Source of the DNA: an uncultured Lachnospiraceae bacterium | Lineage (GTDB): Bacteria; Bacillota; Clostridia; Lachnospirales; Lachnospiraceae | DNA length: 64,000 nt | Direction: 5' to 3' | NCBI GenBank assembly: GCA_947564735.1 | Contig: CANOEC010000016.1 | Coordinates: forward strand, 1 to 64,000 | Shown here: positions 4,576 through 60,675 of the stretch, one piece after another | How positions within the stretch are numbered: position 1 is the first letter of the stretch | Layout of the letters: every line of letters begins with the position of its first letter | Program-made: the position numbers and the translations under genes | The notes under the pieces: generated by a model | Told to the model about the DNA's origin: nothing | Database searches by the model: none | What the model saw: only the letters and a program-made list of their open reading frames with translations

Positions 4576-4616
4576 AAAAAAAACTCCCGGCTATAGATTT
4601 ATTCTATGCCGGGAGT
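4576..4616 (-). terminator. Intrinsic terminator of the surface-protein operon
   Basis: Near-perfect hairpin with arms ACTCCCGGC and GCCGGGAGT at 4583-4616, extended by ATAG/CTAT. On the minus strand it is followed by a run of eight Ts (A-run at 4576-4583). It lies 30 bp past the stop of the 946-aa surface protein gene. Confidence 0.9.
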
Positions 4617-4646
4617 CTGAGTGGGTTCTGTTAGAGTTTCTTTGTT

Positions 4647-7487
4647 TTATATCTTAACTTTTTTCTTTCCACCACGATATGCAAACAATGCAAAGGACGC
4701 ACAGATAAGCCCCGCACACAAGAACCATTTCGGATGGATGCTGTTGTCGCCCGTGTTCGGGGAATCGTCCTTTTTGCCAAGCGACATAAAGACCGCCTGA
4801 CCGTCCTGTACATCCGCTACCACCACGCTGCTCGTCGTATAATTATAAATGCCGTAAGGCGAAAAATGTCTTGCCGTAAAAGTAATGGCATCCATGCCGT
4901 CAACCGATACCACTCTGCTTTCTACTTCTTCGAGCTGCCCGTCTGCGTCCAGACATACTACATGCAGATTTTCCTCGCCCACTCCATTCGGAATCGGAAT
5001 CGTAACCGCAACACTCTGCCTGCCAAGCCCAGTAATCGGTATTCCCGTCTCTGCTTCCGTCATGCTGATTTCATATGCACACAGATTCCTCGGCAGTTTA
5101 CTTCCGTATATCTTTTTATAGACATCACCAATCTTAACTTTTGCTTCTTCGCTGTCCTCGATCGTTAGCACATAATTCTCTTCGGAGCCTTCCATGACCG
5201 CATTCGCCATACCGTCTTTTGGCAGGGAATAGCTGTTTATCCGTACATCAATTCCTTGAGGCGTCGCATCCTGAGACTGTTCGCTGCTATTGACCTTCTC
5301 GGCGCCTTCCTCAAGCACATATGACATTCCATCTATCAGGCAAGTCTCTCCCGCCTGCGGATAGGACCCGTATCCCTGCCTGCCGACAATCTGCAAAATA
5401 CCATCCTCGCCGTCAGCCGCCGCTTTCGACATCTTACAGACAATTCCCTCAAAACCGGCATTGCCATTGTCCAAAATCGTTCCTGTCAGGTCGCTTACAT
5501 TCTCTGGAATGACAGCGATGTGATTACCCTTAAAGGCAAAATCACGATAATTGTCTCTGTACACCTTCGTGGATGTCGCCTCATAGGATAACTCCGGAAG
5601 ACTCTCTCCGCCGAATACAATCACACGACCTGCCCCATTCCCTGCGTCACCATTATCATAGGCGCGAAGCCCGATTTGTTTCGTCGAGGCAGGAATATGG
5701 ATTGTCTCAATAGGACATCCTGCAAAAGCTCTGTCCCGGATCTCCTGCACCATATTGCCGCCTTCCAATGCCACAAGATTGCCGCACCCTTGAAATGCCG
5801 CCTCACCAATCACCTGCACGCTGTCCGGCAGAACCACCTTCGTTATTTCGCCGTGGTCTTTAAAAGCCTCCGCCCCAATCTGCTTCACCTGTGAAGGAAC
5901 GGAAACAATATTGCTGCTTCCCTTGTATGCTAACAGAATGCCGTCACCGACAATGAGATAATCACCTGTCCCATTCTGTTGCCAATCTGTCAGCCATGGC
6001 GTTTTCTCAAATGCTGCCGCCTCAATATTCTTTACATTGTTTGGAATGACCACATTAGTCAACTCGTCGCAATGATAAAAAGCCGCATAACCAATCGTCT
6101 CAACACTGCCCGGAATCCTAATCGAATTAAGATTCGACCTTGCAAATGAAAATTCTCCAAGCCTTATAATACCGTCCGGAATGTCAAAGGAAGTCCTCTC
6201 GTCATCATAATATGCCTGTGCCGCTATGACACAATTATCGACCACCGCATATTTTGGGAAAGAGCCGCCCTTCGCATCATCGGATCCTTCCAGCCCCGGA
6301 ACCGTGTCCGTATTCTGTTCGACATCACTTTGCAATACACCGCCGAGTGTCTCGCCCGTTCCGCCCACATTGACTGTCGCCTGCGCATTATCTACAAGCA
6401 CTACTGCCTCCCGTCCGATCACTCTGGTCTTTCCTCTGACCTCCGGGTCTTCCTCTTCCGTCATGGCATTGATATGTGAAACTTCATGGTAATAATCTAC
6501 CGGCGGAAGAAGCTGCGCATTTTCTGTATCTTCGCCATCCGCCAGATCGTTTCCGCTGACGCTTGACGGAATCGGCGCTTCCTCATACTCAGACACATCA
6601 ATGTCCGCCAATTCCAATGATTGTGCAAAAGTATCTGCTCTCGAACCGGCATCCGCCTGAATTTCTAATTTTGTACACCCATCAAATGCCGTACTGTGAA
6701 TTGTACTGACAGAAGGCGGTACTTTAATCTGACGAAGTCTGACACAGTCTTCAAACGCCTTCATATCAATATTTTTGACAGAATACGGAATTCCGACCTC
6801 CTTCAGATTCTTACAATTAGAAAAAGCATATGCCGAAATTTCTTTGACATTACTGCTGATATCAACTCTCTGTAAATTATAGTCGCCCCAAAATGCATAA
6901 GGCTTAATTTTTTTCACGCTCCCCGGCATGGCATAACTGTCTCCTCTTCTGCCTGCCAATACCTGATAAAGCGTATCCCATCCGTTCTTATTATAGATTG
7001 CGCCGTCATCGCAGGTGAATTTCGGGTTGCTGCTGTCAAACTGCACGTTCGCAAGACTGTAATCCCCTGCAAAAACCCCGTTTCCAAGACTACTAAGTCC
7101 GGTTCCTATCGTCACTGATTTCAATAACGGACAACCGCTGAATGCCGCGTTCTCAATCGTTTTTACGGAATTTGGAACGGAAACGCTTTCCAGATTATTA
7201 CATTCCGAAAAAGCCCCGGAACCAATAAACTCCACCGCATCTCCTATCGTGACGCGCTTGATATAATCGTTACCCTCAAAGGCTCCCGCCTCTATCCTCT
7301 CTACATAATTGGAAATAGACACGTCCTCAGCCGTGCCATTGTATTTCACTAATGTAGTTCCATCCATCTGAAAATCAGATGCGGAAGCGGTTTCCACCGC
7401 TTCCACATCCGATACAGGGATTTGCGTTACTGCTATTGCCGTTACAAGAAGCAGAATACCTATTAGATTTCTTACTTTTTTCCCCAT
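4647..7487 (-). CDS. BspA-like leucine-rich repeat surface protein, sortase substrate
   Basis: A predicted cell-wall-anchored protein of 946 aa. It has an N-terminal signal peptide (about 1-30, core LLVTAIAVTQIPV), BspA-type LRR_5 repeats at about 45-300 and 430-640 (recurrent units such as IGSGAFSECNNLESVSVPNSVKTI), then a region without repeats. A C-terminal domain (TARHFSPYGIYN) precedes a sorting signal, SPNTGD at about 909, a hydrophobic stretch and a basic tail. BspA-like repeats usually mediate adhesion to host or bacterial surfaces. The gene follows the 1861-aa protein gene by 10 bp and shares its signal-peptide core, the HFSPY domain and IHPKWFL after the sorting motif. The sortase gene upstream is the likely anchor enzyme. 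The exact ligand is unknown. Confidence 0.88.
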   Translation of the reverse strand: MGKKVRNLIGILLLVTAIAVTQIPVSDVEAVETASASDFQMDGTTLVKYNGTAEDVSISNYVERIEAGAFEGNDYIKRVTIGDAVEFIGSGAFSECNNLESVSVPNSVKTIENAAFSGCPLLKSVTIGTGLSSLGNGVFAGDYSLANVQFDSSNPKFTCDDGAIYNKNGWDTLYQVLAGRRGDSYAMPGSVKKIKPYAFWGDYNLQRVDISSNVKEISAYAFSNCKNLKEVGIPYSVKNIDMKAFEDCVRLRQIKVPPSVSTIHSTAFDGCTKLEIQADAGSRADTFAQSLELADIDVSEYEEAPIPSSVSGNDLADGEDTENAQLLPPVDYYHEVSHINAMTEEEDPEVRGKTRVIGREAVVLVDNAQATVNVGGTGETLGGVLQSDVEQNTDTVPGLEGSDDAKGGSFPKYAVVDNCVIAAQAYYDDERTSFDIPDGIIRLGEFSFARSNLNSIRIPGSVETIGYAAFYHCDELTNVVIPNNVKNIEAAAFEKTPWLTDWQQNGTGDYLIVGDGILLAYKGSSNIVSVPSQVKQIGAEAFKDHGEITKVVLPDSVQVIGEAAFQGCGNLVALEGGNMVQEIRDRAFAGCPIETIHIPASTKQIGLRAYDNGDAGNGAGRVIVFGGESLPELSYEATSTKVYRDNYRDFAFKGNHIAVIPENVSDLTGTILDNGNAGFEGIVCKMSKAAADGEDGILQIVGRQGYGSYPQAGETCLIDGMSYVLEEGAEKVNSSEQSQDATPQGIDVRINSYSLPKDGMANAVMEGSEENYVLTIEDSEEAKVKIGDVYKKIYGSKLPRNLCAYEISMTEAETGIPITGLGRQSVAVTIPIPNGVGEENLHVVCLDADGQLEEVESRVVSVDGMDAITFTARHFSPYGIYNYTTSSVVVADVQDGQAVFMSLGKKDDSPNTGDNSIHPKWFLCAGLICASFALFAYRGGKKKVKI

Positions 7488-7497
7488 AAGATTTCCT

Positions 7498-10400
7498 TTA
7501 TGCTGTTTTTACTTTCGACGCATTATCCTTCTTCATGAACAGAATAATGGATAAACATGCCAGCCCGACGGATAAGAACCACTTCGGATGAATCGGGTCA
7601 CCCGTCTTCGGCGTTGCGTCGAGCGCTCCTGCTGTCAGATTACCCGTGTCTACATAAACCGTATACGGTGAGAAATGCGTCGCTGTAAATCTGATACAAG
7701 GAACACCGTTAATCGTCGTAAAGTTCTCATTCAGGTTCTCTAACTGGTTGCCGTTAATCACCGCACCAGCCATATTATTACCGCCGTATGCCACCAGCGC
7801 ATCCGGTATCGGAATCGTAATGTCTACGGAAAGTCCTGCAACCTGTTCACCCGTAAGCTGATAAGTTCCGGTGGAATCCCACAAACTGATATCCATCGCA
7901 TAGTAGAGAATATTGTCTAAGCTGCCGTACTTGTTTGTCAGCGCATCCGCTACCGCTCTTGTCGCATTGTCCGTCTCCGTAATCTTGACGATAAAGTTAT
8001 CTGTCGAACCGTTGACATTGGCTGTTGCAAGATCCTTGTTGGAGATACCTGGCTTCGTAATATCAACACGGGTATTACCATTGTCGGTTGTACCGCCGCC
8101 GGTGCCGCCTGTGGATGCCGGGGTCGCTGCCGGAGCAGCCGCCGGTGCCGCGCCTCCTTCAAAATTAGCAATTACAAGAACATCATTCTCCGGCATTACA
8201 AACTGTGTAGCAGTTGCCGTAATCTGGTTAAATGTTACGCCGGACGACTCCGTAGTCCACTCTTTAAATCGCATTCCCGCTGCAGGCTCATTCGCTGCAA
8301 TGACAACTGTTGCTCCCGTTGAATAGCTTCCACTTCCGCTGCCATTCACAACCGTTACCCTGTGCATCGCTTTTGCAGCATCAGAACCGGAGGTCGTAGA
8401 ACTCGTACTGGTTGAACTGCTACTGGTAGACGAACTGCTACTGCTGGTTTTATTACTACTGGTCGTATTGCTCGAAGTATTTGACGTATTACCAGATGTA
8501 TTCGTCGTATTACCGGATGTATTTGTCGTATTACCGGATGTATTTGTCGTTGTTCCACTTACTGTTCCCAGCCCGTTGCTTGCCTTATATAATGCCAGAA
8601 TTGCTTTATTAGCCTGTATATTGGTCGTTTCATCACTCCACTTATCAAACACATAACCTGCATGAATAGGATAAGCAGGCGCAACCGCATCCTTACCGGG
8701 ATCGATGTATTGTGTCGGTCCAATCTTTGTACCGTCAATACTGTCATAGAACTCTACAACATATTGACCATTTACCATGCCATTATTGGTAAATCCTTGT
8801 GCATAGAAAACCGTATCCTCTGTAATCCGGTCATCTATCTTAATATCATTCATGCCAACCCATTTGTCAAAAGTCCACTCCTCTGTTGGTTCCGGATCCT
8901 GCGGTTGTTTTACACGCGTTCCATCCTCAACATACTGCGGATTATCAAGCAGGTTGCCATCAATATCCTTAAGCTCCTCTATCACCTTATAATCCGGTCC
9001 TAAGAAGGTTACCAGCCATTGCTCACCAAGAGGATTGTCATCTAACTGAAGTTTATATTCGGTTCCGTATTCCTTCACATATCTGACCACTGCCGAATCT
9101 TCATAAGTTCTGACTCTTGTCACAGCTTTCGCCGGATTATCATCAAAAGCAGTTCCTGAAATCTTAACTTCTTTACCATAAACAGTCAAATCAGATAACC
9201 GGTTCGCGCCAACGAATGCCTCGCTTCCGACATCATTTACCGTCACAGGAAGTACCACTCTTTGCAAATCATCGCAATTCCTAAAACAGTCATCCGGAAT
9301 GACAGTCAATCCAGCCGTATTGTTATTTCCAAAGTTAACATCCGTAATAACGTCACAATCTTCAAATGCTCCCGGTCTGATTGCACTGACCTGACTCAGC
9401 TTCGGATCGTTAGTAGGACTCACCGACGCCTGCCCTACAATCCCCGGCTTGCCACGCGAAGCAAAGCACTCTTCAATCGTAAGAGAACCGTCTGTGTTCT
9501 TGGAATAAATAATCCCGTTATCCGCTTCATAATAATCATTTCCTGCAACCGAACTCAGCGCATCACATCCTCTGAACGGCGCTGTGCCGATGTCTGCACA
9601 ATCACTGCCAAGCGATACAAACCATAACTGCTCGCAACTGTCAAAGGCATAATCCGGCAAATACTTCACGCCATTCAATGTCACCGTTTTAATGGTGTCA
9701 TTTCCGCGCTTAAATTTCTCAAATTCAGAATCACCGTTATAATCTTCATAATAACCGCTGAACAAGCCCGGAACAATCTTCACATTCTCATCTTCACCCT
9801 GCGTTCTGGTGTACATATTACGACTCTTCTCATCCCAGCCGAGGGCAAAATATGTCGTGTAATTGCCCCTGTTGCTCTCCGGTCCTTTATATATCTCACC
9901 TTCACTCGTCAGATTGTTAACATATCCATATACATCAATGGAATCCACACCATCGGGAACAACAATGTTCTCAACTGCATACCGCAGGTAATCCTCTTCC
10001 GGCGTAGACGGTCTGAACGGATCGTTTGCTTCTGCATTCTTTACCACATCATATTGGTTAACCTCATAATATGGCTTCGGATCCCCATCTGCCGCATATG
10101 CCGTAATCGGCTCAAACAGCCAATCCGTCATCTTTCTCATTGCAGAAGTATCATCCCCGCCCGGAGTCGTTGTACTGCCGCCCGGAGTTCCCGTCGTTCC
10201 AGACGAAGTTGTATCGGACGAAGTTGTATCGGACGAAGTTGTTCCGGTTGAAGTTGTTCCGGTTGAAGTCGTACCGGAACCCGGCGTGCCGTTAACCCAC
10301 TTCTCCCATTGCGCACAGAAATCACCATTTACCCATGGTCCATAACTATCAGATTGATACGCTGCCGCTATCTCTTCATCAGTCGTCGCGCCAGCCCATA

Positions 10401-13083
10401 TTTTAGCAAACTCCGTACGATAACTGTCATAATTACTATTTGCATACAGAGTATATAAATATGCCTCCCGATATTCATTATAATTGTTTGCACCGTAAGC
10501 CTTCATATCATCCTGATGAGCATCAGCCAAGATATCATTAATCTGGTCAGCCTTCGGATAGTCTAACAGCGTGACCATCTTGGTAACCGGATTATACATA
10601 ACCGTCAGATAATCAGGCGACATACTCTTGTAGCATACGCGTATTCCCTGACTGTCCGGTTTCTCACTGTCAATGATATTATCGGGATCCATTGCCCAGT
10701 CAAAGGGCGCATATCCTTCCACGATGTCTCCATGGAAAGTCAGTTTTTCACTTTCCGTCTTAAATGCATCCGTTCCAATCGTAAATGACTCATGTCCGCC
10801 CAACGGGGAACTAAACGTAACATCTACCAGACTATTACATTTCTTAAACGCATTCTTACCTATAGATGTAACGGAATTACCAATGTACACAGAAGCCAGA
10901 TTTTGCCAGTCCCTGCCATTATCTCCGCCGCCGCCTTGGAATACGCCATCGGCAATAGACGTTATGGATTCATCTTCTATCTTCAAAGAAATCGTATTTT
11001 CATTTAACTCGGAATCACTGAAACACCCGGATGCAATTCCCGTTACCTTCGTATTGCCTACCACTGCCGGAATCACCAGCTTGACATTTCTCTTCTTTGA
11101 AGCCGGCAGCCCCGGTTTAAATGTGCAGGAAGTCAGAATCCCCTCGTTATTAATACAGAGCAGATAGGTTCCGTCGCTGACCTCATAATATTCTACACCA
11201 TTCTCAATGTACAAATACGGTACTGTATCAGAGACCGTTGTCGTCGCATCCCACGTACTTTTACGCGGAGCAGCCGGCTGGGAATCATAGTTGAGCTTAG
11301 GTCCTTTCACATAAAAATCCGGGTTGATTACATCCTGAAACAGACCGGAAGCAGTGATAGTTCCATCTTGTTCATCTTTTTCTGTCTTGTTATAGGAAAC
11401 AAATCCGCAAGCCTGCGGGTCTGTCTGAGGGTCACAGGGAAACTCAACATATTTCAAATTCGCACAGCCATGAAATACTTCGTCCGGTATTGTGGCTGCT
11501 TTACTGCTGGTACGACCATAATCTTTAGGGAAAACCACGGACTCTAATGCAGACCGTCCGGCAAATAAATAATTACCGATGCTCTTTGGTTCCGTCATTC
11601 CCTGCGGCAATACAATGTTCATTGGCTGAGACCCTGTCTCTACTGCAAAAGCGCCATCACCAATCGAAACGATTGTCGCATCCTTCATGGCAATATCATT
11701 TAAGGCAGAACAGTTGTAAAACGCATATGCATCTATTTTACAGTCTCTGCCAATATGGTTCAAATTCACACTTGTCAGACTCTTACAATTTGCAAACGCC
11801 CCGTAACCAATTTCCGTCACCGAAACAGGCAGTTCGATTTTCTGTATTGCCGTCCCGCTAAAACATTCTTGACCGATTGTCTGTGTACCCTGCCTGATAT
11901 CTACCGTTGCCAGTTTTACACAGCCTTTAAACGCACGGTTGCCAATGTGCGCCGTATTGCCGATTGTAATCGCCTCAAGCAAAGAGGCATCGGTAAACGC
12001 CTCGTCGCCTATAAATCCAATCTGATCCGGGATTGTCATATTCACTACATTGTTGACGCCCTTGAATGCGCCAGCCCCAATTGCACACATGAGACGTGGG
12101 CTTCTTTCTTCCACAAGGAAGCCTGCATCATCCTTTGTGAAAGGGTCTGGCGGCGTAATGCCTTCCGGAACTTTGACAAGATAAACTATGCCGCCCTTCC
12201 CATCCGGCTCCGGTCTGCCGTCAACAGCGCTGCGCAATGTGTAGCCGCTGCCTATATTTTTGATTGCGTTATTATGTTCGCAATAATACTCTAGCCGCTG
12301 CTCATTCGTTAAAATTTCATTTGGTATCCTGCTGAGACTTGTCGTCGGTTCTGTCGGCTTCGTTGAAGGATCCTTATCCGGCGAACTGTTCCAAGCATCC
12401 AGTGCGGCATCATATGCCTGAAACTCTTTTACAACGCTGTCATAATCTTCTTTACAGTATTTTTCATAAAAGGCGATTGCCTTCGCATCAGCCGTAGTGC
12501 CGCCTTTATATGCAGCATAATCGAAAATCACCTCGTCCGTAGCCTTATTATCCATTCCTGCGTTTGATGTTCCGGCAAAGTATGCCTCAACCGCATCACT
12601 CTCGACTGTATAATACTTTGTAATAGGTCTTAACCCAAGCTCGACTTTCTCAGAATAGAACCGGCTGTTATATTTACATATAACCCCACTATCAATATTA
12701 TCTATCGGATTTTTTACATTATAAAAAAGGAATTGCCATGACAAACTTATATCACCATTGCCAAGATCCGTAATTGCATAAGATGCCGAAGCACCGTCAT
12801 CCATTATCTCTGCCACATCTTTATCTTTGTACTTATTCAGATTAATACTTAAAACAGGGTCTACATCATACGCCGAATCAGGCTCATACACAAACTTACT
12901 CATATCATGTTTGTCTATAATCTCTGCCGCCCTGCCAGCCGCCTCCCCATTATCCGCATAGTTCTCCGGTACCGGGATCGCCGCAACGGCAATCGCCGTA
13001 ATCATAAGTACCGCTGACAGACTGCGTCTGACGCTTCTCTTCAATCTTCTTCTCGGTTTTCTAGCCGGTGTCTTCTTAGCCAT
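7498..13083 (-). CDS. Giant BspA-like surface protein with InlB-type repeats, sortase substrate
   Basis: A predicted surface adhesin of 1861 aa. Order of parts: a very basic N-terminal leader and signal peptide (about 1-43, core MITAIAVAAIPV); LRR_5 blocks at about 320-560 and 690-800; a helical Tyr/Asn-rich stretch near 850-930; a Ser/Thr linker at about 935-985; a second LRR block at about 1100-1350; InlB B-repeat-like modules (FDKW, VFDKWSDE) at about 1370-1500; a TNTSGN-repeat linker at about 1506-1565; a divergent B-repeat (RFKEWTTE); the HFSPY domain; then TPKTGD at about 1824, IHPKWFL, a membrane segment and a basic tail. An AAGGAG site sits 9 nt before the ATG. It is the middle gene of the sortase operon. 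The two low-complexity linkers are encoded by near-identical DNA repeats and may vary in length. Confidence 0.88.
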   Translation of the reverse strand: MAKKTPARKPRRRLKRSVRRSLSAVLMITAIAVAAIPVPENYADNGEAAGRAAEIIDKHDMSKFVYEPDSAYDVDPVLSINLNKYKDKDVAEIMDDGASASYAITDLGNGDISLSWQFLFYNVKNPIDNIDSGVICKYNSRFYSEKVELGLRPITKYYTVESDAVEAYFAGTSNAGMDNKATDEVIFDYAAYKGGTTADAKAIAFYEKYCKEDYDSVVKEFQAYDAALDAWNSSPDKDPSTKPTEPTTSLSRIPNEILTNEQRLEYYCEHNNAIKNIGSGYTLRSAVDGRPEPDGKGGIVYLVKVPEGITPPDPFTKDDAGFLVEERSPRLMCAIGAGAFKGVNNVVNMTIPDQIGFIGDEAFTDASLLEAITIGNTAHIGNRAFKGCVKLATVDIRQGTQTIGQECFSGTAIQKIELPVSVTEIGYGAFANCKSLTSVNLNHIGRDCKIDAYAFYNCSALNDIAMKDATIVSIGDGAFAVETGSQPMNIVLPQGMTEPKSIGNYLFAGRSALESVVFPKDYGRTSSKAATIPDEVFHGCANLKYVEFPCDPQTDPQACGFVSYNKTEKDEQDGTITASGLFQDVINPDFYVKGPKLNYDSQPAAPRKSTWDATTTVSDTVPYLYIENGVEYYEVSDGTYLLCINNEGILTSCTFKPGLPASKKRNVKLVIPAVVGNTKVTGIASGCFSDSELNENTISLKIEDESITSIADGVFQGGGGDNGRDWQNLASVYIGNSVTSIGKNAFKKCNSLVDVTFSSPLGGHESFTIGTDAFKTESEKLTFHGDIVEGYAPFDWAMDPDNIIDSEKPDSQGIRVCYKSMSPDYLTVMYNPVTKMVTLLDYPKADQINDILADAHQDDMKAYGANNYNEYREAYLYTLYANSNYDSYRTEFAKIWAGATTDEEIAAAYQSDSYGPWVNGDFCAQWEKWVNGTPGSGTTSTGTTSTGTTSSDTTSSDTTSSGTTGTPGGSTTTPGGDDTSAMRKMTDWLFEPITAYAADGDPKPYYEVNQYDVVKNAEANDPFRPSTPEEDYLRYAVENIVVPDGVDSIDVYGYVNNLTSEGEIYKGPESNRGNYTTYFALGWDEKSRNMYTRTQGEDENVKIVPGLFSGYYEDYNGDSEFEKFKRGNDTIKTVTLNGVKYLPDYAFDSCEQLWFVSLGSDCADIGTAPFRGCDALSSVAGNDYYEADNGIIYSKNTDGSLTIEECFASRGKPGIVGQASVSPTNDPKLSQVSAIRPGAFEDCDVITDVNFGNNNTAGLTVIPDDCFRNCDDLQRVVLPVTVNDVGSEAFVGANRLSDLTVYGKEVKISGTAFDDNPAKAVTRVRTYEDSAVVRYVKEYGTEYKLQLDDNPLGEQWLVTFLGPDYKVIEELKDIDGNLLDNPQYVEDGTRVKQPQDPEPTEEWTFDKWVGMNDIKIDDRITEDTVFYAQGFTNNGMVNGQYVVEFYDSIDGTKIGPTQYIDPGKDAVAPAYPIHAGYVFDKWSDETTNIQANKAILALYKASNGLGTVSGTTTNTSGNTTNTSGNTTNTSGNTSNTSSNTTSSNKTSSSSSSTSSSSTSTSSTTSGSDAAKAMHRVTVVNGSGSGSYSTGATVVIAANEPAAGMRFKEWTTESSGVTFNQITATATQFVMPENDVLVIANFEGGAAPAAAPAATPASTGGTGGGTTDNGNTRVDITKPGISNKDLATANVNGSTDNFIVKITETDNATRAVADALTNKYGSLDNILYYAMDISLWDSTGTYQLTGEQVAGLSVDITIPIPDALVAYGGNNMAGAVINGNQLENLNENFTTINGVPCIRFTATHFSPYTVYVDTGNLTAGALDATPKTGDPIHPKWFLSVGLACLSIILFMKKDNASKVKTA
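8465..8548. repeat. 21-bp coding minisatellite (TNTSGN linker)
   Basis: Four 21-bp units start at 8465, 8486, 8507 and 8528. The last two are identical, the one before differs at a few bases and the first is more divergent. They encode a seven-residue SGNTTNT repeat on the minus strand. In-frame gain or loss of units would lengthen or shorten the stalk without a frameshift. Confidence 0.9.
10195..10275. repeat. 15-bp coding minisatellite (Ser/Thr/Gly linker)
   Basis: Consecutive 15-bp units of the forms gttgtatcggacgaa and gttgttccggttgaa, each in at least two exact copies, encode a TTSSD/TTSTG linker between the two leucine-rich-repeat blocks of the 1861-aa protein. The unit is a multiple of three, so copy changes stay in frame. 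Confidence 0.85.
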
Positions 13084-45733: not shown

Positions 45734-46759
45734 TTACACCTGTATCTCTCCTGCCAGAACACGCTTATAATCTTCCAGATTCTTCTGTAACAATGCCGGC
45801 GTATCCAGTCCGTAGGGACATTTACTCTTGCACTGGTTACAGTGGATGCAGTTTTCAATCTTCATCATCTTCTCCTGCCCTTCCGGACTAAGCTGTGCCG
45901 CAGATGGAGAACGCCTAAGCAGCAATGACATCCTCGCACAATTATTAATCTCAATTCCTGCCGGACATGGCATACAGTAACCGCATCCCCGGCAAAAATC
46001 GCCCAATAATTCTTCTCTGTCATTTCGGATGACCTCTGCCAGTTCTTCCGTCATCGCCGGCGGATTGTCAATATAAGATAAAAATTCATCCAGCTCCGAT
46101 TCCCTCTGCACACCCCAGATGGGAAGTACATTGTCATACTGCGCAAGGAACGCATACGCCGCCGCAGAATTATTAATCAGTCCGCCGGATAACGCCTTCA
46201 TGGCGATCAATCCCATGTCAGCCTCCCTGCACTTCTCTACCAGTTCGATATCCTTCTCACTCGCCAGATAACAGAACGGAAACTGCAATGTCTCATACAA
46301 TCCGCTGTCAATCGCCTCATGCGCCACCGCAAGACGGTGATTGGTTATACCGATATGACGTATCTTTCCTTCTGCTTTTGCCTGAAGCGCCGCCTCATAC
46401 AGACCGCTTTCATCCCCCGGCTTTGGACAAAAAGCCGGATTATGGAACTGGTAGATATCAATATAATCCGTCTTAAGGTTCTCAAGACTCGTTTCCAAAT
46501 CCTGCCAGAAACCTTCTGCATTCTGCGCGCCGGTTTTGGTCGCAATAAAAACTTTTTCACGCATTCCCTCAAAGGCAAGTCCGACTTTATGTTCGCTGTC
46601 GGTATACCATCTCGCCGTATCGAAGAACGTAATTCCATTCTCATATGCTTTCTTCAAAAGATATACCGCCTCGTCATCAGAAATTCGCTGAATAGGCAGC
46701 GCACCAAACGCATTTTTGTTTGTCTCTATCCCTGTTTTCCCAAGCTTCACAGTCTCCAT
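45734..46759 (-). CDS. Aldo/keto reductase with C-terminal 4Fe-4S ferredoxin domain
   Basis: A 341-aa fusion. The N-terminal aldo/keto reductase barrel (about 1-245) shows the catalytic residues Asp and Tyr in FFDTARWYTDSE, Lys in VFIATKTGA and His in IYQFHNP. The C-terminal part (about 250-330) carries two Cys clusters, CRGCGYCMPCPAGIEINNC and CIHCNQCKSKCPYG, forming a dicluster-like ferredoxin module. Such fusions are common in anaerobes, but their substrates are unknown. It is 21 bp downstream of the TerY-C domain gene on the same strand, so it may be the last gene of the TerY-P operon, giving that system a redox component. That link rests on spacing only. Confidence 0.9.
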   Translation of the reverse strand: METVKLGKTGIETNKNAFGALPIQRISDDEAVYLLKKAYENGITFFDTARWYTDSEHKVGLAFEGMREKVFIATKTGAQNAEGFWQDLETSLENLKTDYIDIYQFHNPAFCPKPGDESGLYEAALQAKAEGKIRHIGITNHRLAVAHEAIDSGLYETLQFPFCYLASEKDIELVEKCREADMGLIAMKALSGGLINNSAAAYAFLAQYDNVLPIWGVQRESELDEFLSYIDNPPAMTEELAEVIRNDREELLGDFCRGCGYCMPCPAGIEINNCARMSLLLRRSPSAAQLSPEGQEKMMKIENCIHCNQCKSKCPYGLDTPALLQKNLEDYKRVLAGEIQV

Positions 46760-46780: not shown

Positions 46781-47140
46781 CTATATGTCGCCGGCTGAAC
46801 CGAAGCCGGACCCGTCATAACGCCCCAGCGTACCGGTCAGACCGCACCAGTTACACGTAAATTTTTCTGTTCTGCCATTATGACAGCTTAATTTTCCGCA
46901 GTGACAGACGACAAAATCCATTGTTCTGCAGAACGGACATCCCGGATATCCATCGTCCGCTATCAGATTTCCAACAATCTTCGTCTTATCATAATTTTCA
47001 CGCTTTGCAGACGCTTCTTTTACCGGAAAAGCCCATGTATATTTCCAGTCATCTCCTGTCTTTTCAAAACGCACACCATAGATTCTTCCGCCTTCTTTGC
47101 ACTTACACAGTGCAATCCGGGCTTCCATTTTCTCATTCAA
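46781..47140 (-). CDS. Stand-alone TerY-C zinc-binding domain protein
   Basis: A 119-aa protein consisting of one TerY-C-type metal-binding domain. Several Cys pairs are visible: CKC near residue 14, PGCPFC (about 66-71), VCHCGKLSCHN (about 79-89) and CNWCGLTG near 97. The RIYGVRFEKTGDDWKYTWAFPVKEASAKRENYDKT block is typical of the family. In other genomes this domain is fused to the C terminus of TerY; here it is a separate gene 42 bp downstream of the PP2C gene. The start is a TTG at 47140 with AGGAAGGA 6 nt upstream. The first in-frame ATG, at 47128, is 18 nt from that site. Confidence 0.85.
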   Translation of the reverse strand: MNEKMEARIALCKCKEGGRIYGVRFEKTGDDWKYTWAFPVKEASAKRENYDKTKIVGNLIADDGYPGCPFCRTMDFVVCHCGKLSCHNGRTEKFTCNWCGLTGTLGRYDGSGFGSAGDI

Positions 47141-47182
47141 GGCAAATCCTTCCTTTCCGATGCTACGCCGTATCCGTGTACA

Positions 47183-48016
47183 TCAAGAAAAATCATCCTG
47201 CGCATAATAGGAAAACAGAGCCGTAATATCATCTCCACATCCTAATTCACTCGTCTCCGAAAGCCATGTTTTCAGATTGTCGGATACCGCCTTTGCTCCG
47301 TGCTCATTGAGCAATGTAAAGTAATCATGACAAGTCTTTTGAAACTCCGCATCATTTTTAAAACTGTTTGCCATGCCATCCGTACAAAGCATATACAGAA
47401 CAGGCAGACAGATATTTTCTCCCTCTCTTTTTACGAAGGTAACCGCCTTTTTCCATGCATCCTGCCTGCTCAACGAATGCGTTTCTGTTCCGAGAATTTT
47501 ATCCGCCTCAATGATATTCTGCACACCCTTGTCCGATACTTTGATAATATCACCGTCGCCAATCTGAAAAGCAAACAGAAACTCTTTCGTAATCACCAGT
47601 CCGAGCAATGTACTCCCGTACATTTTGTAAATCGCTCCCTTGTCTTTATTGTTCTTAGCATCCAGAATCACTTCCCGTTTGCATCTGGCATGAATCTTCA
47701 GTATTCTGCGTTTCCATTCGGCGTCAATCGCCTGCGCCACTTTTGTATCGCCTTCCCGCTTTAAAAAGGTCAATAGCAGCTCCGGCTGCCCCTCATAGGT
47801 TTCCAGATAATCACCGAGAATTTTACAAAATACGTTTACCGCCACATAAGAACCGGTTTTGCTGTACGGACTAGAACTGCTCCCATGTCCGTCCGCCACC
47901 GCCAGTATCACCGTATTTTCATCCATTTCCACTTTTTTTAAGCTGTCCTGACATTCCCTGCCGCTTCTGATATGGGATGCGCCCTGCACAGATTCACCGA
48001 ATACACTTCGTATCAT
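47183..48016 (-). CDS. PP2C-type protein phosphatase of the TerY-P system
   Basis: A 277-aa metal-dependent Ser/Thr phosphatase. PP2C signatures are ILAVADGHGSSSS (about 37-49, metal Asp), AFQIGDGDII (about 155), LYMLCTDGMANSF (about 213, metal Asp) and LGCGDDITALFSYY near the C terminus. No membrane segment. ATG at 48016 has AAAGGA 8 nt upstream; a TTG at 48022 is too close to that site. It lies between the TerY-like and TerY-C genes, and is expected to reverse phosphorylation by the kinase encoded upstream. Confidence 0.92.
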   Translation of the reverse strand: MIRSVFGESVQGASHIRSGRECQDSLKKVEMDENTVILAVADGHGSSSSPYSKTGSYVAVNVFCKILGDYLETYEGQPELLLTFLKREGDTKVAQAIDAEWKRRILKIHARCKREVILDAKNNKDKGAIYKMYGSTLLGLVITKEFLFAFQIGDGDIIKVSDKGVQNIIEADKILGTETHSLSRQDAWKKAVTFVKREGENICLPVLYMLCTDGMANSFKNDAEFQKTCHDYFTLLNEHGAKAVSDNLKTWLSETSELGCGDDITALFSYYAQDDFS

Positions 48017-48058
48017 ATGCAATGTCCTTTCTAAGTAACGGTCCGATTTCCGACTCTT

Positions 48059-48778
48059 CTACCAGACATCACCCTCATTAATGTCCTCAAGGTCAGGCAG
48101 TCTTCCGCCCATATCCACAATCACCGGATTTACGCCGCCGTCAGCAGCTCCTCCATCGTCCGTTCCAATGCTTGCCGGTGCCGACACAAGGGAAGCCGCC
48201 GTAGACGCCCATTTAATCATCTTCGTAAGCGCCGCCGCGTTGTTTGCCTGCAGAACCAGTTCCTTGTTGCCCGTAAACGCTTCCAGTACCTCATCATCCG
48301 CATCCTGCCCGATGGAAATCGCTATTTTCACCGCTTTCTTGCCCCACGGAAGCTTCTTTAGTTCCGCCAGCGATTTTTTATAATCGTCAGTAGGCTGTCC
48401 GTCAGACAATAGCACCAGCACAGGCGGTAACGCCCTGTCCGACATCGGCGGAATAGTAAGCTGCGCTGACAACAGCTCAAATGCTTTGCCCAAATCGGTT
48501 ACGCCTTCCGCCTCCAAATCATCCCATGCAAAATCTTCCACATTTACCGGACTGCTTGTCACCCATGACGCACCCGTAGAAAACTTTAATGTGCGGACTA
48601 ACAACTGTGCGTTGGGATTATTCTCCGCCGCCGACACCATCTCCGGTATCGTTGACTGGATTGCATGATTCACTGTGCCAATCTTCTCCCCGTGCATGGA
48701 ACCCGAACAGTCCACAATCCAAAAAAAATGTAACGGTCTGCTTGCCAGTTCCCCTCCCGGTCTTTTCAATTCAGCCAT
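48059..48778 (-). CDS. TerY-like von Willebrand factor A domain protein
   Basis: A 239-aa cytoplasmic protein. The vWA domain (about 12-195) has a complete MIDAS metal site: DCSGS in FWIVDCSGSMHG, the Thr in GVTDLGKAF and Asp in LLSDGQPTDD. It opens RPGGELASRPLHFFWIVD, a pattern typical of TerY. The C-terminal tail (about 196-239) is acidic and Gly/Ala-rich without the usual fused zinc domain, which is encoded separately downstream. In TerY-P triads this protein is thought to be a scaffold linking kinase and phosphatase. GGAGG lies 7 nt before the ATG, and the LRR gene ends 12 bp upstream. Confidence 0.93.
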   Translation of the reverse strand: MAELKRPGGELASRPLHFFWIVDCSGSMHGEKIGTVNHAIQSTIPEMVSAAENNPNAQLLVRTLKFSTGASWVTSSPVNVEDFAWDDLEAEGVTDLGKAFELLSAQLTIPPMSDRALPPVLVLLSDGQPTDDYKKSLAELKKLPWGKKAVKIAISIGQDADDEVLEAFTGNKELVLQANNAAALTKMIKWASTAASLVSAPASIGTDDGGAADGGVNPVIVDMGGRLPDLEDINEGDVW

Positions 48779-48790
48779 CCTGTCTCCTCC

Positions 48791-49975
48791 TTAATATCGT
48801 GCGCTCGCACATCTTATCTGCTGCATCCTTGCATACTGCATCGCATAAGAACCTGCATTGCACAGAATTCTAAAATCTTCCCTTCTTTCTTCGGGTTCCC
48901 CGAAGGTCTGTAAGAATCCATTCCCTTTTCCGCCTCCAATCTCCACAACGGAATCCGGTATATAAATACTTGCAAGATTTTTACATCCCGCAAAGGCGCC
49001 TTCCTCGATGCTTCTTACTCCTTCCGGCAAATCCACGCTTTTTATTGATTCACAGCCTTCAAATGCCGACAGCCTGACGGTTTCCAGTTCCTGCGGAAAT
49101 CTCACCTCCTCCAGACTCTGACACCAGCGGAAAGTTCCCTTGTGAATCTCCCTGAGTTTCGATGGAAGTATGGCTCTTTTCATTTTTCCGCAGCCTGCAA
49201 ACGTATACTCGCCGATATACTTTACGCTGTCCGGTATCGTTATGCTTTCTAATGCGGTATATTCAAATGCGCCGTCAAACTTAATCATACTGCCTAAGAT
49301 TGCAGGACAGCCCGTTGCGTCCGTTGTTCCGATACGCTTCAAAGACCCCGGCAGAACCACTTCCCGCAGCCCTTTGCAATTTAAGAACGCCCCGTTTCCC
49401 AGAATCTCAATTCCTTCGGAAATCATGATTTTCTCGATACCGACACATCCTTTGAACGCATGATTGCCGACCGCAATTACCCTTTTGCCCTCAATGACAT
49501 TGGGAACAACAACTGTCTTATCATCAAAATCGACAAACCGGTTGATAATGAGTCCTCTTGACGTTTCCTCGTACTCATATGCACTGTCGCTTTCAACTGC
49601 AGTCCACTCCTGTGCCCGCTTATCCCCTGCGTCTGTTTCCTTTGATGTGCCGCCATTTCCTGTGATAGTTCTTCCGTCATCTGACGTCAGTCCCATTGCC
49701 TGCGCCCATGTAAGCACCGCACGCTCGGCATTCCTCGTCCTGATGCCGTATCCCTGCTCAACCGACTTCACAAACCGGTGCAGGGCAATGCGGTCCATCT
49801 GCCCTATTCCTCTCATCTCATTCACGATTCCGTCATCAAATACCATCAGCAGTGTATTTCTTTTCAGCCTGTCCGTCGGAAAAAAGTCTGAAAACAAGGC
49901 ATGCAGCTTCTTCCTCTCCGAAAGAGCCTCCGGATAATCCTCTATGATTTTTTTTAGAACTTCATAGTCTTCCAT
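48791..49975 (-). CDS. Cytosolic leucine-rich repeat protein of the TerY-P operon
   Basis: A 394-aa protein without signal peptide, membrane segment or sorting signal. The first 95 residues form a helical domain (LHALFSDFFPTDRLKRNTLLMVFDDGI) that I cannot name. A variable linker follows (about 100-145, Thr/Gly/Glu-rich). The rest (about 150-385) is BspA-type LRR_5 repeats, for example GCVGIEKIMISEGIEILGNGAF and AFEGCESIKSVDLPEGVRSI. BspA-like repeats are usually surface modules, so this intracellular copy between kinase and TerY genes is notable. It may bind the system's target or ligand (inference). ATG at 49975 has GGAAG 8 nt upstream; an alternative ATG at 49990 has no site. Confidence 0.88.
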   Translation of the reverse strand: MEDYEVLKKIIEDYPEALSERKKLHALFSDFFPTDRLKRNTLLMVFDDGIVNEMRGIGQMDRIALHRFVKSVEQGYGIRTRNAERAVLTWAQAMGLTSDDGRTITGNGGTSKETDAGDKRAQEWTAVESDSAYEYEETSRGLIINRFVDFDDKTVVVPNVIEGKRVIAVGNHAFKGCVGIEKIMISEGIEILGNGAFLNCKGLREVVLPGSLKRIGTTDATGCPAILGSMIKFDGAFEYTALESITIPDSVKYIGEYTFAGCGKMKRAILPSKLREIHKGTFRWCQSLEEVRFPQELETVRLSAFEGCESIKSVDLPEGVRSIEEGAFAGCKNLASIYIPDSVVEIGGGKGNGFLQTFGEPEERREDFRILCNAGSYAMQYARMQQIRCASARY

Positions 49976-50002
49976 ATATTCAACTTCCATTCACACGAAT
50001 AC

Positions 50003-51301
50003 TTAATAAAACCCGCCCGTCAACTGCCCGAAATCAATCTTTGCATCTTTGGCAATCGCTGCCGAACGTCCTTCCATTACAGGAATCTGCGTTCCATCCG
50101 CCTTGATATAGGTCCAGTTTTCTTTCGTTAAATTTTTAATCCCCCAGAGGTTCGGATTGTTTGGATTCTGCACCACTTCTCCTACTACGGTTTCCATATC
50201 ATGCCCGCCGTCAATATGGTGCTTATAGATTTTTGTATTTGCCATAAGCAGAATAGTACTTCTGCCAATCACAAGTTTAGACGGAACAGGCACCGGCTTC
50301 TGACAGCCCCAGCATGTATGCATGACGCCGTTGGCTTCCTTGTTTACATCATAGAACACTTCCGCACCGCAGCTTGGGCAAATCATAATTCCCGACATCA
50401 GATTTGCAAATGTTTCCAGCCATTTACTCTCCGTGACTCTCCGGTTAGGCTGCTGCAATCCTACGGTAAATGATAACGTAAACAGTTCTTTTAACTGCTG
50501 TGGATACAAATCCCAGAAAATAAGCGCATTGTCCTGATAGCCGGCAAGCGGACGATTTTCTTTATTATCAGGGTCAAAAATAAACAACGGATTCGTTCCG
50601 TACAACTGGTTCATTGCATGAATGTCCATACATTTAATCTGCGCTTCCCGTCTTCCCTCCAGTGGATGATTCAACATAAACATATAGAACAACAGCACTA
50701 CCAGCGAAAATAAATCCGTATTTCTGGAAGGCTTCGCTTTGCCGACGACAATTTCAGGCGCCATAAAACGGGGTGTTCCGTAGATTCCGGTTTTCGCTCC
50801 ATTATAAGAAACATTATCGTTATCGCATATAAGCACGTCACCCGTATCCGGATCAAAAAAAACATTGCCAAAGGAAATATCCCGGTAACTGTATCCCTTT
50901 GCGTGCAACGCGTTATACCCTTTTGTCAAATTATAAGCGGCTTTGCACAGACAATAAAAGGACGGCTCCGCCTTTCTCTTCATCATATCCACAATGCTTT
51001 TATAATTTTTAGGTCTAAGCGGCATAATGTAACCGAAGGGCTCTCCGTATATCGTAAAAATCATATCCTGCGGCCACAAAAAAGACGCATCCGGCGCTCC
51101 GCTCTGTATCAAATTATCCAGTATTTCTTTCTGGTTTTCGGTTGCCGTACTTTTATAATACCATTTCAGCGCATATGTTTGATTGCCGGCATTTACCGAA
51201 TATACCTCTCCCTGACCGCCGGAGCCTAGCAGTTTTTCAACCGTATACCTGTTACCGCTTTCAGAAATGAGCGTCATTTTGCTCTTCAACTGTCCGTCCA
51301 T
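50003..51301 (-). CDS. Hanks-type Ser/Thr protein kinase with C-terminal zinc ribbon
   Basis: A 432-aa cytoplasmic kinase heading the TerY-P operon. Kinase features are the Gly loop LLGSGGQGEVY (about 24-34), Lys46 in YALKWYY, catalytic Asp141 in YRDISFGN (HRD-like with Tyr for His), metal Asp160 in LICDNDN (DFG-like, degenerate) and the APE motif (181-183). The C-terminal part has a zinc ribbon, MICPSCGAE and TCWGCQKP (about 316-346). A beta-rich domain follows (about 350-432, with VVQNPNNPNLWGIKNLT), resembling the FHA or similar sandwich folds, but I cannot assign it. It starts 132 bp downstream of rnfB. Confidence 0.92.
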   Translation of the reverse strand: MDGQLKSKMTLISESGNRYTVEKLLGSGGQGEVYSVNAGNQTYALKWYYKSTATENQKEILDNLIQSGAPDASFLWPQDMIFTIYGEPFGYIMPLRPKNYKSIVDMMKRKAEPSFYCLCKAAYNLTKGYNALHAKGYSYRDISFGNVFFDPDTGDVLICDNDNVSYNGAKTGIYGTPRFMAPEIVVGKAKPSRNTDLFSLVVLLFYMFMLNHPLEGRREAQIKCMDIHAMNQLYGTNPLFIFDPDNKENRPLAGYQDNALIFWDLYPQQLKELFTLSFTVGLQQPNRRVTESKWLETFANLMSGIMICPSCGAEVFYDVNKEANGVMHTCWGCQKPVPVPSKLVIGRSTILLMANTKIYKHHIDGGHDMETVVGEVVQNPNNPNLWGIKNLTKENWTYIKADGTQIPVMEGRSAAIAKDAKIDFGQLTGGFY

Positions 51302-58694: not shown

Positions 58695-59846
58695 TTAAGC
58701 CTCTGCATCTTCATCAGCCGCTTCATTTGCTATCATTGCTTCAATATCTACGGAAGCAATATCCGCATCATCTTCTTTCTGTTCTTCCGGTTCGGAAGCA
58801 AACATTGCCTTCACACTCAGACTAATCTTCTTGTCGGTCTCGTTGAAATCTACCACCTTAGCCGTTACCTCTTCGCCAACCTTCAGTACATCAGCAGGTT
58901 TCTCAATATGCTCTTTAGAAATCTGTGATACATGAAGCAGTGCGTCAATTCCGGCTTCCAGCTCGATAAATGCACCGAAATCCGTCATGCGTGCAACCTT
59001 CCCCGTCACTACGTTGCCAATTGCATATTTGCTTGCGGCATCCTTCCAAGGATTCTCATCCTCAAATTTAAGACTAAGCGCAATCTTGGTGCCGGAAATC
59101 TCTTTAATCAGAACTTTCACGACGTCACCAACCTTAAATACCTTCTTCGGATTCTCCACTCTGCCCCATGACATCTCTGAAATATGGAGCAGACCGTCAC
59201 AGCCGCCTAAATCAATGAACGCACCAAAATCCGTCACATTCTTAACCGTTCCTTCTACTGTATCGCCCACTTTAATCGTCTCGAACAGTTTCTTCTGTAA
59301 TTCGGCTTTCTCAGCCATGATAAGCTGTTTTCTGTCACCGATATAACGTCTTCTCTTCGGATTGTATTCACTGATTACGAACTCAATCTCCTGTCCGGCA
59401 TATTTGTTCAAATCTTTCTCATAAGTATCGGATACAAGGCTTGCAGGAATAAAGATTCTTACTTCCTCCACGACAACGCTCAGACCGCCGTCGAGTACCT
59501 GCGCAACTTTTGCCTTCAGCACCTCTCTGTTATTATATGCTTCCTCAATCCTCTTATTGCCTCTGTCTGCGGCAAGACGTTTATAAGTAAGAAGAACTTG
59601 TCCCTCACCGTCGTTTACCTTAAGTACCTTCACTTCCATCGTATCGCCGGGTTTGGTAACGGTTGTCAAATCTACGTTGGGTTCATTTGTATATTCATTT
59701 CTGGTAAGAACACCATCTGATTTATATCCGATGTTGAGAATAATCTCTTCCGGCTTCACATCAATAACGGTACCTTCAACAACCTCTCCTGTGTGTATTG
59801 TCTTAAATGATTCTTCTAACATTTGTTCAAAAGTTAACTCTGACAT
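58695..59846 (-). CDS. rpsA: Ribosomal protein S1 homologue
   Basis: A 383-aa RNA-binding protein with four S1 domains at about 16-85, 103-168, 189-257 and 274-343 (for example GTVKNVTDFGAFIDLGGCDGLLHISEMSW). It has two fewer repeats than E. coli S1, as usual for Firmicutes. An acidic tail closes it. The start at 59846 has GGAGG 9 nt upstream. It overlaps the end of ispH by 20 bp, so the two are translationally coupled. In several Clostridia, ispH and this gene are fused into one polypeptide. Confidence 0.94.
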   Translation of the reverse strand: MSELTFEQMLEESFKTIHTGEVVEGTVIDVKPEEIILNIGYKSDGVLTRNEYTNEPNVDLTTVTKPGDTMEVKVLKVNDGEGQVLLTYKRLAADRGNKRIEEAYNNREVLKAKVAQVLDGGLSVVVEEVRIFIPASLVSDTYEKDLNKYAGQEIEFVISEYNPKRRRYIGDRKQLIMAEKAELQKKLFETIKVGDTVEGTVKNVTDFGAFIDLGGCDGLLHISEMSWGRVENPKKVFKVGDVVKVLIKEISGTKIALSLKFEDENPWKDAASKYAIGNVVTGKVARMTDFGAFIELEAGIDALLHVSQISKEHIEKPADVLKVGEEVTAKVVDFNETDKKISLSVKAMFASEPEEQKEDDADIASVDIEAMIANEAADEDAEA

Positions 59847-60675
59847 AATTTTGAACCTCCTCGATAATATTGTTTGGGGTCGAAGCCCCTGCTGTAATAC
59901 CCACCAGTCGGACAGATTTAGGTAAATCAAGATGCAAGTCGTCGAGCGTCTGTATGAAATATGTGTTTACACACTCCTGCCTGCAGATCTCATATAGCTT
60001 CCGTGTATTAGAACTATGATTACCACCTATTACTATCATAACATCGACCGTCGCGGCTATTTTTCTAGCCTCAGCCTGTCGCACTTCCGTAGCGTTACAT
60101 ATAGTATTCACAACATAAACATTGTACCCTTTTTCCATGAAAATTTCAACCATATCTTGAAATTTATTGTAGTTAAATGTCGTCTGGGAAACAATACAAA
60201 TCTCTTCGTCCTTCCCGCACACAAAATCACGCGCTTCTTCAAGCGATTCTATCACGGTCGTCGGCTTTGTTGACCAGCCCATGATTCCTTCTACTTCCGG
60301 ATGTCCCGCATTGCCGATGATCACAATTTTTTTACCCGCTTTGCTCTCTGTTTCCACGATATTATGAATGCGTTTCACAAAGGGGCAGGTGGCATCCACA
60401 CACACTAACCCCTGCTTTTGTATCATCTCGCAGACCCTTTTGGGTACACCGTGGGAACGTATGACCACGGTTCCTTCCGTAATCGTCTGAAGCTGTTCTT
60501 CGTTTTCAATGACTTTCACGCCTTTTTGCTCCAAATCTTTTACAACTTCTTCGTTATGGATAATCGGACCGTAGGTGTAAATCGCTTTTCCCATATCCGC
60601 CTGCTCATACACCTGCTCTACCGCTCTCTTTACCCCGAAACAGAACCCGGCATGTTCGGCTAAAATCACTTCCAT
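59827..60675 (-). CDS. ispH: 4-hydroxy-3-methylbut-2-enyl diphosphate reductase
   Basis: The last enzyme of the MEP isoprenoid pathway, yielding IPP and DMAPP with a 4Fe-4S cluster. The 282-aa protein has the three cluster Cys: HAGFCFGVKRAV (about 12), VDATCPFVKRIH (about 96) and VNTICNATEVRQAE (about 193). VIGGNHSSNTRKL and GITAGASTPNN are also family signatures. Its last 20 bp overlap rpsA. It is 94 bp downstream of cmk in the block cmk-ispH-rpsA seen in many Clostridia. Confidence 0.97.
   Translation of the reverse strand: MEVILAEHAGFCFGVKRAVEQVYEQADMGKAIYTYGPIIHNEEVVKDLEQKGVKVIENEEQLQTITEGTVVIRSHGVPKRVCEMIQKQGLVCVDATCPFVKRIHNIVETESKAGKKIVIIGNAGHPEVEGIMGWSTKPTTVIESLEEARDFVCGKDEEICIVSQTTFNYNKFQDMVEIFMEKGYNVYVVNTICNATEVRQAEARKIAATVDVMIVIGGNHSSNTRKLYEICRQECVNTYFIQTLDDLHLDLPKSVRLVGITAGASTPNNIIEEVQNYVRVNF

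What the first reader, a model, noticed from the sequence alone, without database searches (positions are those of the whole stretch)
46781..51301. TerY-P phosphorylation operon with an added intracellular LRR protein
Five compact minus-strand genes encode a Hanks kinase with zinc ribbon, a BspA-type LRR protein, a TerY-like vWA protein with intact MIDAS, a PP2C phosphatase and a detached TerY-C zinc domain. Kinase, TerY and PP2C are the known TerY-P triad. The cytosolic LRR protein inserted between kinase and TerY, and the splitting off of the TerY-C domain, are not part of the textbook layout. LRR_5 repeats are normally extracellular adhesins, so an intracellular role as ligand sensor or substrate binder is an attractive inference. 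No TerC, TerD or other tellurite genes are seen.
Basis: partly seen in the sequence, partly recalled or inferred. Interest (0 to 1): 0.85.

Follow-up and report, generated by a model that had tools for sequence, protein, structure and literature searches.

The report
TerY-P phospho-switch with plug-in LRR adaptor
A gut bacterium carries a kinase-phosphatase switch whose extra leucine-rich-repeat protein begins with a small, apparently unnamed helical domain that related switches fuse to many other parts, so the finding points to a swappable-parts signalling platform rather than one odd gene.

Summary
The five genes are real and at the stated coordinates: ZnR kinase, BspA-type LRR protein, MIDAS-bearing vWA, PP2C, stand-alone TerY-C. 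In this Lachnospiraceae genus the LRR protein and the orthologous vWA occur in the same 44 of 78 species genomes. In 28 of 30 loci fetched from genomes without the cassette, RnfB is followed directly by the AKR gene. One close relative, L133, has kinase-vWA-PP2C-TerY-C without the LRR.

The key feature is the LRR protein's N-terminal ~90-residue helical domain (AF2 pLDDT 94.6), without Pfam or clear PDB match. It recurs in 35 of 41 TerY-P loci outside the genus. Across all loci examined it is fused to LRR, ankyrin, Sel1, RCC1, several helicases, FGE-sulfatase and, on a Methylomonas plasmid, Sel1, Tim44, Clp_N and the ClpX zinc finger. A tree test suggests LRRs were joined to it more than once.

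Best reading: a TerY-P phospho-switch whose adaptor domain docks interchangeable receptor or effector modules; here a cytosolic LRR receptor. Docking, ligand and output are inferred. New variant of a known kind.

The parts
50003..51301 (-). Ser/Thr kinase (432 aa): kinase domain aa 19-236, four-Cys zinc ribbon aa 308-333 (about 50303-50380), conserved beta-rich-looking C-terminal region (about 50006-50293)
   Evidence: Pfam Pkinase 1.7e-19; catalytic residues and four Cys kept in 88-89 of 89; C-terminal region aligned over 22 loci
48791..49990 (-). LRR protein (399 aa), 12 bp downstream of the kinase stop and 12 bp upstream of the vWA start
   Evidence: LRR_5 5.3e-42; no TM or signal peptide evident; AF2 mean pLDDT 82.9
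49691..49957 (-). Adaptor domain of the LRR protein: ~90 aa, seven helices, the only copy found in the genome
   Evidence: AF2 pLDDT 94.6; one copy in each of 44 of 78 genus genomes; no Pfam family for the window row, best 0.0084 among 48 members
48794..49570 (-). BspA-type leucine-rich repeats with C-terminal cap
   Evidence: Pfam LRR_5; Foldseek best 4fs7 E 4.2e-12; median dN/dS 0.093
48059..48778 (-). TerY-like vWA protein (239 aa) with MIDAS and a conserved C-terminal ...DVW tail
   Evidence: VWA 8.6e-8; MIDAS 97 of 97; tail DVW in 82 of 97, final W in 94 of 97
47183..48022 (-). PP2C phosphatase (279 aa as listed; in-frame ATG at 48016)
   Evidence: PP2C_2 5.5e-37; acidic ligands 87 of 87
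46781..47140 (-). Stand-alone TerY-C zinc domain (119 aa), eight conserved Cys
   Evidence: TerY_C 3.2e-11; Cys 45 of 45

Best explanation
A TerY-P phospho-switch (kinase, antagonistic PP2C, metal-binding vWA, zinc domain) to which a receptor is attached through a small helical adaptor domain. Shown: the cassette, conserved catalytic residues, the adaptor domain, its recurrence with different partner modules in TerY-P loci of several phyla, purifying selection. Inferred: the adaptor docks on the TerY-P proteins (the vWA C-terminal ...DVW tail is my preferred, untested docking peptide); the LRR surface binds a protein or ligand in the cytosol; binding brings it to the kinase or shifts the kinase/PP2C balance; phosphorylation alters the bound target or a downstream output. 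In relatives the same adaptor carries helicases or Clp-recognition domains, so the module carried would decide what the switch acts on.
For: LRR and orthologous vWA in the same 44 of 78 genus genomes; order kept in 41 of 43 fetched loci, median gaps 10 and 12 bp; cassette absent as a unit at the rnf site in 28 of 30 fetched empty loci. Adaptor domain in 35 of 41 non-genus loci, two or three such proteins in 7 of them. Partner modules: LRR_5, Ank, Sel1, RCC1, DEAD, UvrD, AAA_11, SNF2, RNA pol alpha CTD, DUF4261, FGE-sulfatase, Tim44, Clp_N, zf-C4_ClpX. Nearest kinase lineage outside the genus (Lachnotalea, L157; fork 99/94) has an adaptor protein without LRR in the same slot. LRR-bearing adaptors of the genus and of the BrxL loci are rejected as one clade (p-AU 0.00057). 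Median dN/dS: vWA 0.033, kinase 0.063, LRR repeats 0.093 (61 pairs), linker 0.31 (58 pairs). Five paralogous adaptor proteins behind a TerY-P triad in Methylomonas.
Against: L133 has kinase-vWA-PP2C-TerY-C without LRR, and no adaptor domain was found in its 2.4 Mb genome (that search had no positive control). L156, L163, L174 and L186 also lack the adaptor in the DNA held, as do L047, L048 and L049. L133, L163 and L174 keep the DVW tail without it, which weakens tail-docking. Six order-level genomes, all of one family, hold adaptor-domain pairs with no TerY-P in the stretch held. The genus has one adaptor protein per genome, so pairing between different adaptor proteins cannot apply there. No physical interaction was tested.
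Confidence: 0.5

Rival explanations
1. Anti-phage defence: the cassette is a slimmed relative of TerY-P/BrxL-type loci, and the LRR recognises a phage protein to trigger the kinase.
For: TerY-P variants protect against phages (PMC10889362 passages; PMC7699616 passage). 12 of the 13 non-genus loci with an adaptor-LRR protein also carry BrxL. Patchy presence: 8 changes on an RnfA+RnfB tree of 60 rows. In 10 carriers the cassette lies elsewhere, with no RnfB in the upstream stretch held.
Against: No nuclease, helicase or BrxL among the five genes; same site beside rnf in 30 carriers; divergence follows RnfB (r about 0.7); LRR repeats dN/dS 0.093, no sign of an arms race; in PADLOC only the kinase matched anything.
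Confidence: 0.25
2. Metal or envelope-stress response like the Ter system, with the LRR as a structural scaffold only.
For: Conserved metal sites (MIDAS, zinc ribbon, TerY-C) in nearly every member; two family loci (L045, L192) have TerD beside the triad together with an adaptor-LRR protein.
Against: No TerD in the genome. TerY-C is not next to the triad in 15 of 44 carriers, three of them cut by contig ends before that point.
Confidence: 0.2
3. The LRR gene is a passenger: a decayed surface adhesin captured by the operon.
For: LRR_5 is typical of surface proteins (recalled; the best PDB matches are mostly surface LRR proteins); L133 does without it.
Against: Purifying selection, present in all 44 genus carriers, dedicated N-terminal domain shared with other TerY-P loci.
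Confidence: 0.03

Closest known systems
TerY-P phosphorylation triad (Anantharaman 2012 and Gao 2020, known to me only through passages of PMC11090510 and PMC7699616)
   Same: vWA with MIDAS, PP2C and kinase with zinc ribbon, adjacent genes
   Different: Adds an adaptor-LRR protein between kinase and vWA; TerY-C is a separate gene; no TerD in the genome; no restriction genes in the cassette
Kinase-PP2C-vWA set of the GAP1-N2 GTPase-centric systems (PMC7159879, passage)
   Different: Described there for actinobacteria with a GTPase; the passage names no LRR or helical adaptor
Effector-associated domains and bacterial Death-like domains (PMC7159879, PMC8195603, passages)
   Same: Small helical domain shared by several proteins of one operon and fused to varied effectors
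   Different: No named EAD among the Pfam matches of 48 members; sits with TerY-P, a word absent from both main texts (0 occurrences); single copy in the window genus
TerY-P in Type II/III-A CoCoNuTs (PMC11090510, passages)
   Same: ZnR kinase, PP2C, vWA used as an accessory phospho-module
   Different: No McrB GTPase or nuclease gene here; the LRR mentioned there is fused to a CDC48-like ATPase, not to this adaptor
BspA-type surface LRR proteins (PDB 4fs7, 4gt6, 6mlx)
   Same: LRR_5 repeats and fold
   Different: No export signal evident; N-terminal adaptor domain; operon with kinase and phosphatase

Membership tests
TerY-P triad | TerY-like vWA with intact MIDAS | tested here: met
   D23, S25, S27, T94, D126 in 97 of 97
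TerY-P triad | PP2C phosphatase next to it | tested here: met
TerY-P triad | Ser/Thr kinase fused to C-terminal zinc ribbon | tested here: met
   Pkinase; four Cys 88-89 of 89; no curated zinc-ribbon model over its cut-off
Ter tellurite-resistance system | TerD family protein in the genome | tested here: not met
   0 matches; controls rang in 2 of 14
Ter tellurite-resistance system | TerC membrane protein | not tested
   no search made
Effector-associated domain (EAD) systems | Same small helical domain in two or more proteins of one locus | tested here: inconclusive
   not so in the window genus (one copy); met in 7 of 41 other loci and in L242
Effector-associated domain (EAD) systems | Sequence or fold homology to a named EAD or Death-like domain | tested here: inconclusive
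BREX/BrxL-type systems | BrxL in the cassette | tested here: not met
   none among the five proteins; present in 14 of 41 related loci
BspA-type surface adhesin | Export signal or membrane anchor | tested here: not met
   N-terminus MEVEYMEDYEV, maximum 19-residue hydropathy 0.95; no dedicated signal-peptide predictor was available

The most novel reading that the evidence does not exclude
An undescribed helical adaptor domain turns TerY-P into a general phospho-signalling chassis: each locus plugs in its own receptor or effector (LRR, ankyrin, Sel1, RCC1, helicase, FGE-sulfatase, ClpA-type N-domain, ClpX zinc finger), a bacterial counterpart of interchangeable substrate-receptor complexes or death-domain scaffolds, found in records of Bacillota, Synergistota, Actinomycetota, Bacteroidota and Pseudomonadota (several are metagenome bins). 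The Clp fusions suggest that one output is phosphorylation-gated proteolysis.
Probability: 0.35. Interest if true: 0.82.

Novelty: new variant of a known kind. Interest (0 to 1): 0.63.

Why it matters
What most TerY-P switches sense and act on is, as far as the passages I read tell, unknown. A shared docking domain with swappable modules gives a direct handle: the attached module names a candidate input or target, and one domain profile can pull the family out of genomes. It also offers a well-conserved cytosolic BspA-type LRR protein with a definite signalling context.

Tried and rejected
Rejected: (1) LRR as passenger, see rivals. (2) AKR gene (45734-46759) as sixth member: it stays next to rnf when the cassette is absent. 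(3) TerY-C as obligatory: not next to the triad in 15 of 44 carriers (L063, L071 and L078 are cut by contig ends first); four carriers have a TerY-C on another contig (G214, G227, G229, G238) and one genome without the vWA orthologue has one (G225). (4) FHA identity for the kinase C-terminal region: FHA_2 for 1 of 22 members at 0.06, PDB profile best E 1.5; unresolved. (5) Carrier-protein identity of the adaptor: 2 of 48 members match DltC, best 1.3e-4, in NCBIfam, the window row not; taken as chance or very remote. (6) Positive selection on the LRR: not seen in pairwise dN/dS. (7) LRR adaptors as one family: rejected by the AU test, but I named the groups after seeing the tree, and the alignment has only 89 columns.

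Rows left out: A3 used the window and 37 of 50 listed LRR rows, A4 the window and 47 of 81 listed domain rows, A5 22 kinases; the kinase tree used the window, 13 of the 39 other genus kinases and 50 others; the domain tree used 9 genus rows and 70 others; rows with ambiguous residues were dropped and L121 from A3; dN/dS pairs were limited to mean dS 0.05-1.0 and are not independent. 388 of 468 vWA relatives were never returned. Labels Rnf, ApbE and GH25 are mine by recall, from no family search.
Full report
Observation. Catalytic and metal-binding residues are kept: kinase K46, D141, N146, D160 in 88 of 89; ribbon Cys in 88-89 of 89; PP2C acidic ligands 87 of 87; MIDAS 97 of 97; eight TerY-C Cys 45 of 45. 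None of the five shows a membrane helix or signal peptide by hydropathy. Kinase-LRR and LRR-vWA gaps are 12 bp each in the window; in the genus the medians are 10 bp (n 42) and 12 bp (n 43). Promoter- and terminator-like sites are at shuffle level, so one transcript is the simplest reading, not shown.

Genus survey. Among 78 species genomes of the genus the LRR N-terminal domain was found in 44 and the orthologous vWA in the same 44 (in G265 only its first 56 residues, at a contig end); two more genomes have only remote vWAs. Of 43 fetched genus loci 41 show kinase-LRR-vWA-PP2C; two stop at contig ends. TerY-C follows in 28 of 43 plus the window. In 30 carriers, the window included, rnf genes lie upstream in the stretch held; in 10 the cassette has other neighbours; in 4 the contig is cut. 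Of the 34 genomes without the cassette, 31 have a strong RnfB match and 30 loci were fetched: 28 have an essentially complete AKR gene directly after RnfB, one a partial AKR near a contig end, one ApbE. The cassette is gained or lost as a unit at that site and AKR is not part of it. On an RnfA+RnfB tree of 30 carriers and 30 empty genomes 8 changes are needed (4 forced by well-supported branches; shuffles 20.5 on average, 0 of 500 as low). Exception: L133, whose kinase joins the genus clade at an unresolved fork, has kinase-vWA-PP2C-TerY-C with about 70 bp between kinase and vWA and no LRR; a profile search of its 2.4 Mb genome found no adaptor domain, without a positive control. By recall, strain names (1xD42-87, 0.1xD8-71) point to the GTDB genus 14-2.

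It recurs in TerY-P loci. A scan of GTDB genomes with the vWA profile found 468 relatives, of which the best 80 were returned; 39 of these belong to the genus or next to it (37 with the full four-gene order, L114 cut, L133 without LRR). Of the other 41, 35 hold at least one protein with the domain (28 one, 3 two, 4 three). The six without are L146 and L179 (cut contigs that still hold an LRR fragment), L156, L163, L174 and L186. Partner modules by Pfam in loci: LRR_5, ankyrin, Sel1, RCC1, DEAD, UvrD, AAA_11, SNF2 (weak, partial adaptor match), RNA polymerase alpha CTD, DUF4261. FGE-sulfatase is the partner in L240. On a Methylomonas plasmid (L242) five tandem adaptor proteins behind kinase-vWA-PP2C carry Sel1, nothing known, Tim44, Clp_N and the ClpX zinc finger. 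The domain may be N- or C-terminal, one per protein in 113 proteins. In the family sample vWA relatives occur in 9 of 200 genomes; six of the nine have the domain nearby and three (L047, L048, L049) do not. In an order sample 16 of 392 genomes have the domain; of the 14 outside the genus, 7 have it beside TerY-P, 6 have tandem pairs without TerY-P in the stretch held, and one contig is too short. In a phylum sample 3 of 398 have it, the window genome included; in the other two it is beside TerY-P.

History. In the kinase tree the genus (with L133) is sister to Lachnotalea glycerini L157 (99/94), which has a 237-aa adaptor protein without LRR in the same kinase-vWA slot; its adaptor domain is 48% identical to the window's. 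The BrxL-linked loci form another kinase clade and carry their LRR adaptor upstream of the kinase. Holding the two LRR-bearing groups together is rejected (p-AU 0.00057), while genus plus L157 is not (0.217); groups were named after seeing the tree. So the LRR 'insertion' is best read as a changed module on an adaptor that was already resident in that slot.

Selection. Across 61 closely related pairs median dN/dS is 0.033 for vWA, 0.063 kinase, 0.107 PP2C, 0.113 adaptor, 0.093 LRR repeats, and 0.312 for the linker (58 pairs). The vWA core is more conserved than RnfA (mean identity 0.953 against 0.926), while the LRR protein diverges about 2.5 times as fast as RnfB in matched pairs. This argues against decay and gives no sign of an arms race.

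A docking lead. The vWA ends in DVW in 82 of 97 sequences and in W in 94 of 97; the three without W (L048 and two of L049) come from loci without the adaptor. But L133, L163 and L174 keep DVW without the adaptor in the DNA held, and relatedness confounds the pattern, so the tail may equally bind kinase or PP2C.

Function. TerY-P modules are described as a phosphorylation switch with a zinc-ribbon kinase, hypothesised to sense metals, and variants act against phages (PMC11090510 passages; PMC10889362 passages; PMC7699616 passage). The EAD papers (passages) describe the general principle of small helical adaptors shared between proteins of one operon, and one of them a kinase-PP2C-vWA set in GTPase systems. 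I combine these: an adaptor-borne LRR as receptor of a TerY-P switch. Ligand and output are unknown.

Literature limits. In searches (20 of 45 listed), 27, 53, 54, 91, 92 and 93 of the open library no listed title, abstract start or passage that I read describes an LRR protein of this kind or this domain with TerY-P; I read passages of seven papers and none whole. The founding paper is not held.

Noticed in passing
L242 (CP157007.1, Methylomonas plasmid) 4587-12016: TerY-P triad followed by five tandem paralogous adaptor proteins with Sel1, unknown, Tim44, Clp_N and ClpX zinc finger: suggests recruitment of Clp proteases.
   Followed up: partly
L043, L148, L149, L151-L153, L159, L161, L162, L169, L171, L182, L187: Recurrent larger locus: BrxL, adaptor-LRR, often a small PH-like protein (my label), kinase, vWA, PP2C, with TerY-C and/or transglutaminase in many; a likely defence system.
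   Followed up: partly
L043, L154, L157, L165, L188: Large helicase-type protein (MTES_1575 nuclease domain in L043) next to a protein ending in the adaptor domain.
   Followed up: no
L193, L194, L196, L198, L199, L201: Tandem pairs of adaptor-domain proteins without TerY-P in the stretch held; a relative, L096/L191, has RCC1 repeats and lies beside TerY-P.
   Followed up: partly
window 50006-50293: Highly conserved region at the kinase C-terminus (NP..P..WGI.N....WTY), no Pfam family.
   Followed up: partly
window 48059-48778, C-terminus: Conserved ...DVW C-terminal tail of TerY-like vWA proteins after a variable linker.
   Followed up: partly
window 58695-60675: ispH-like and S1-domain ORFs overlap; an ATG for the S1 gene lies at 59845 inside the ispH end. 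Looks ordinary.
   Followed up: partly
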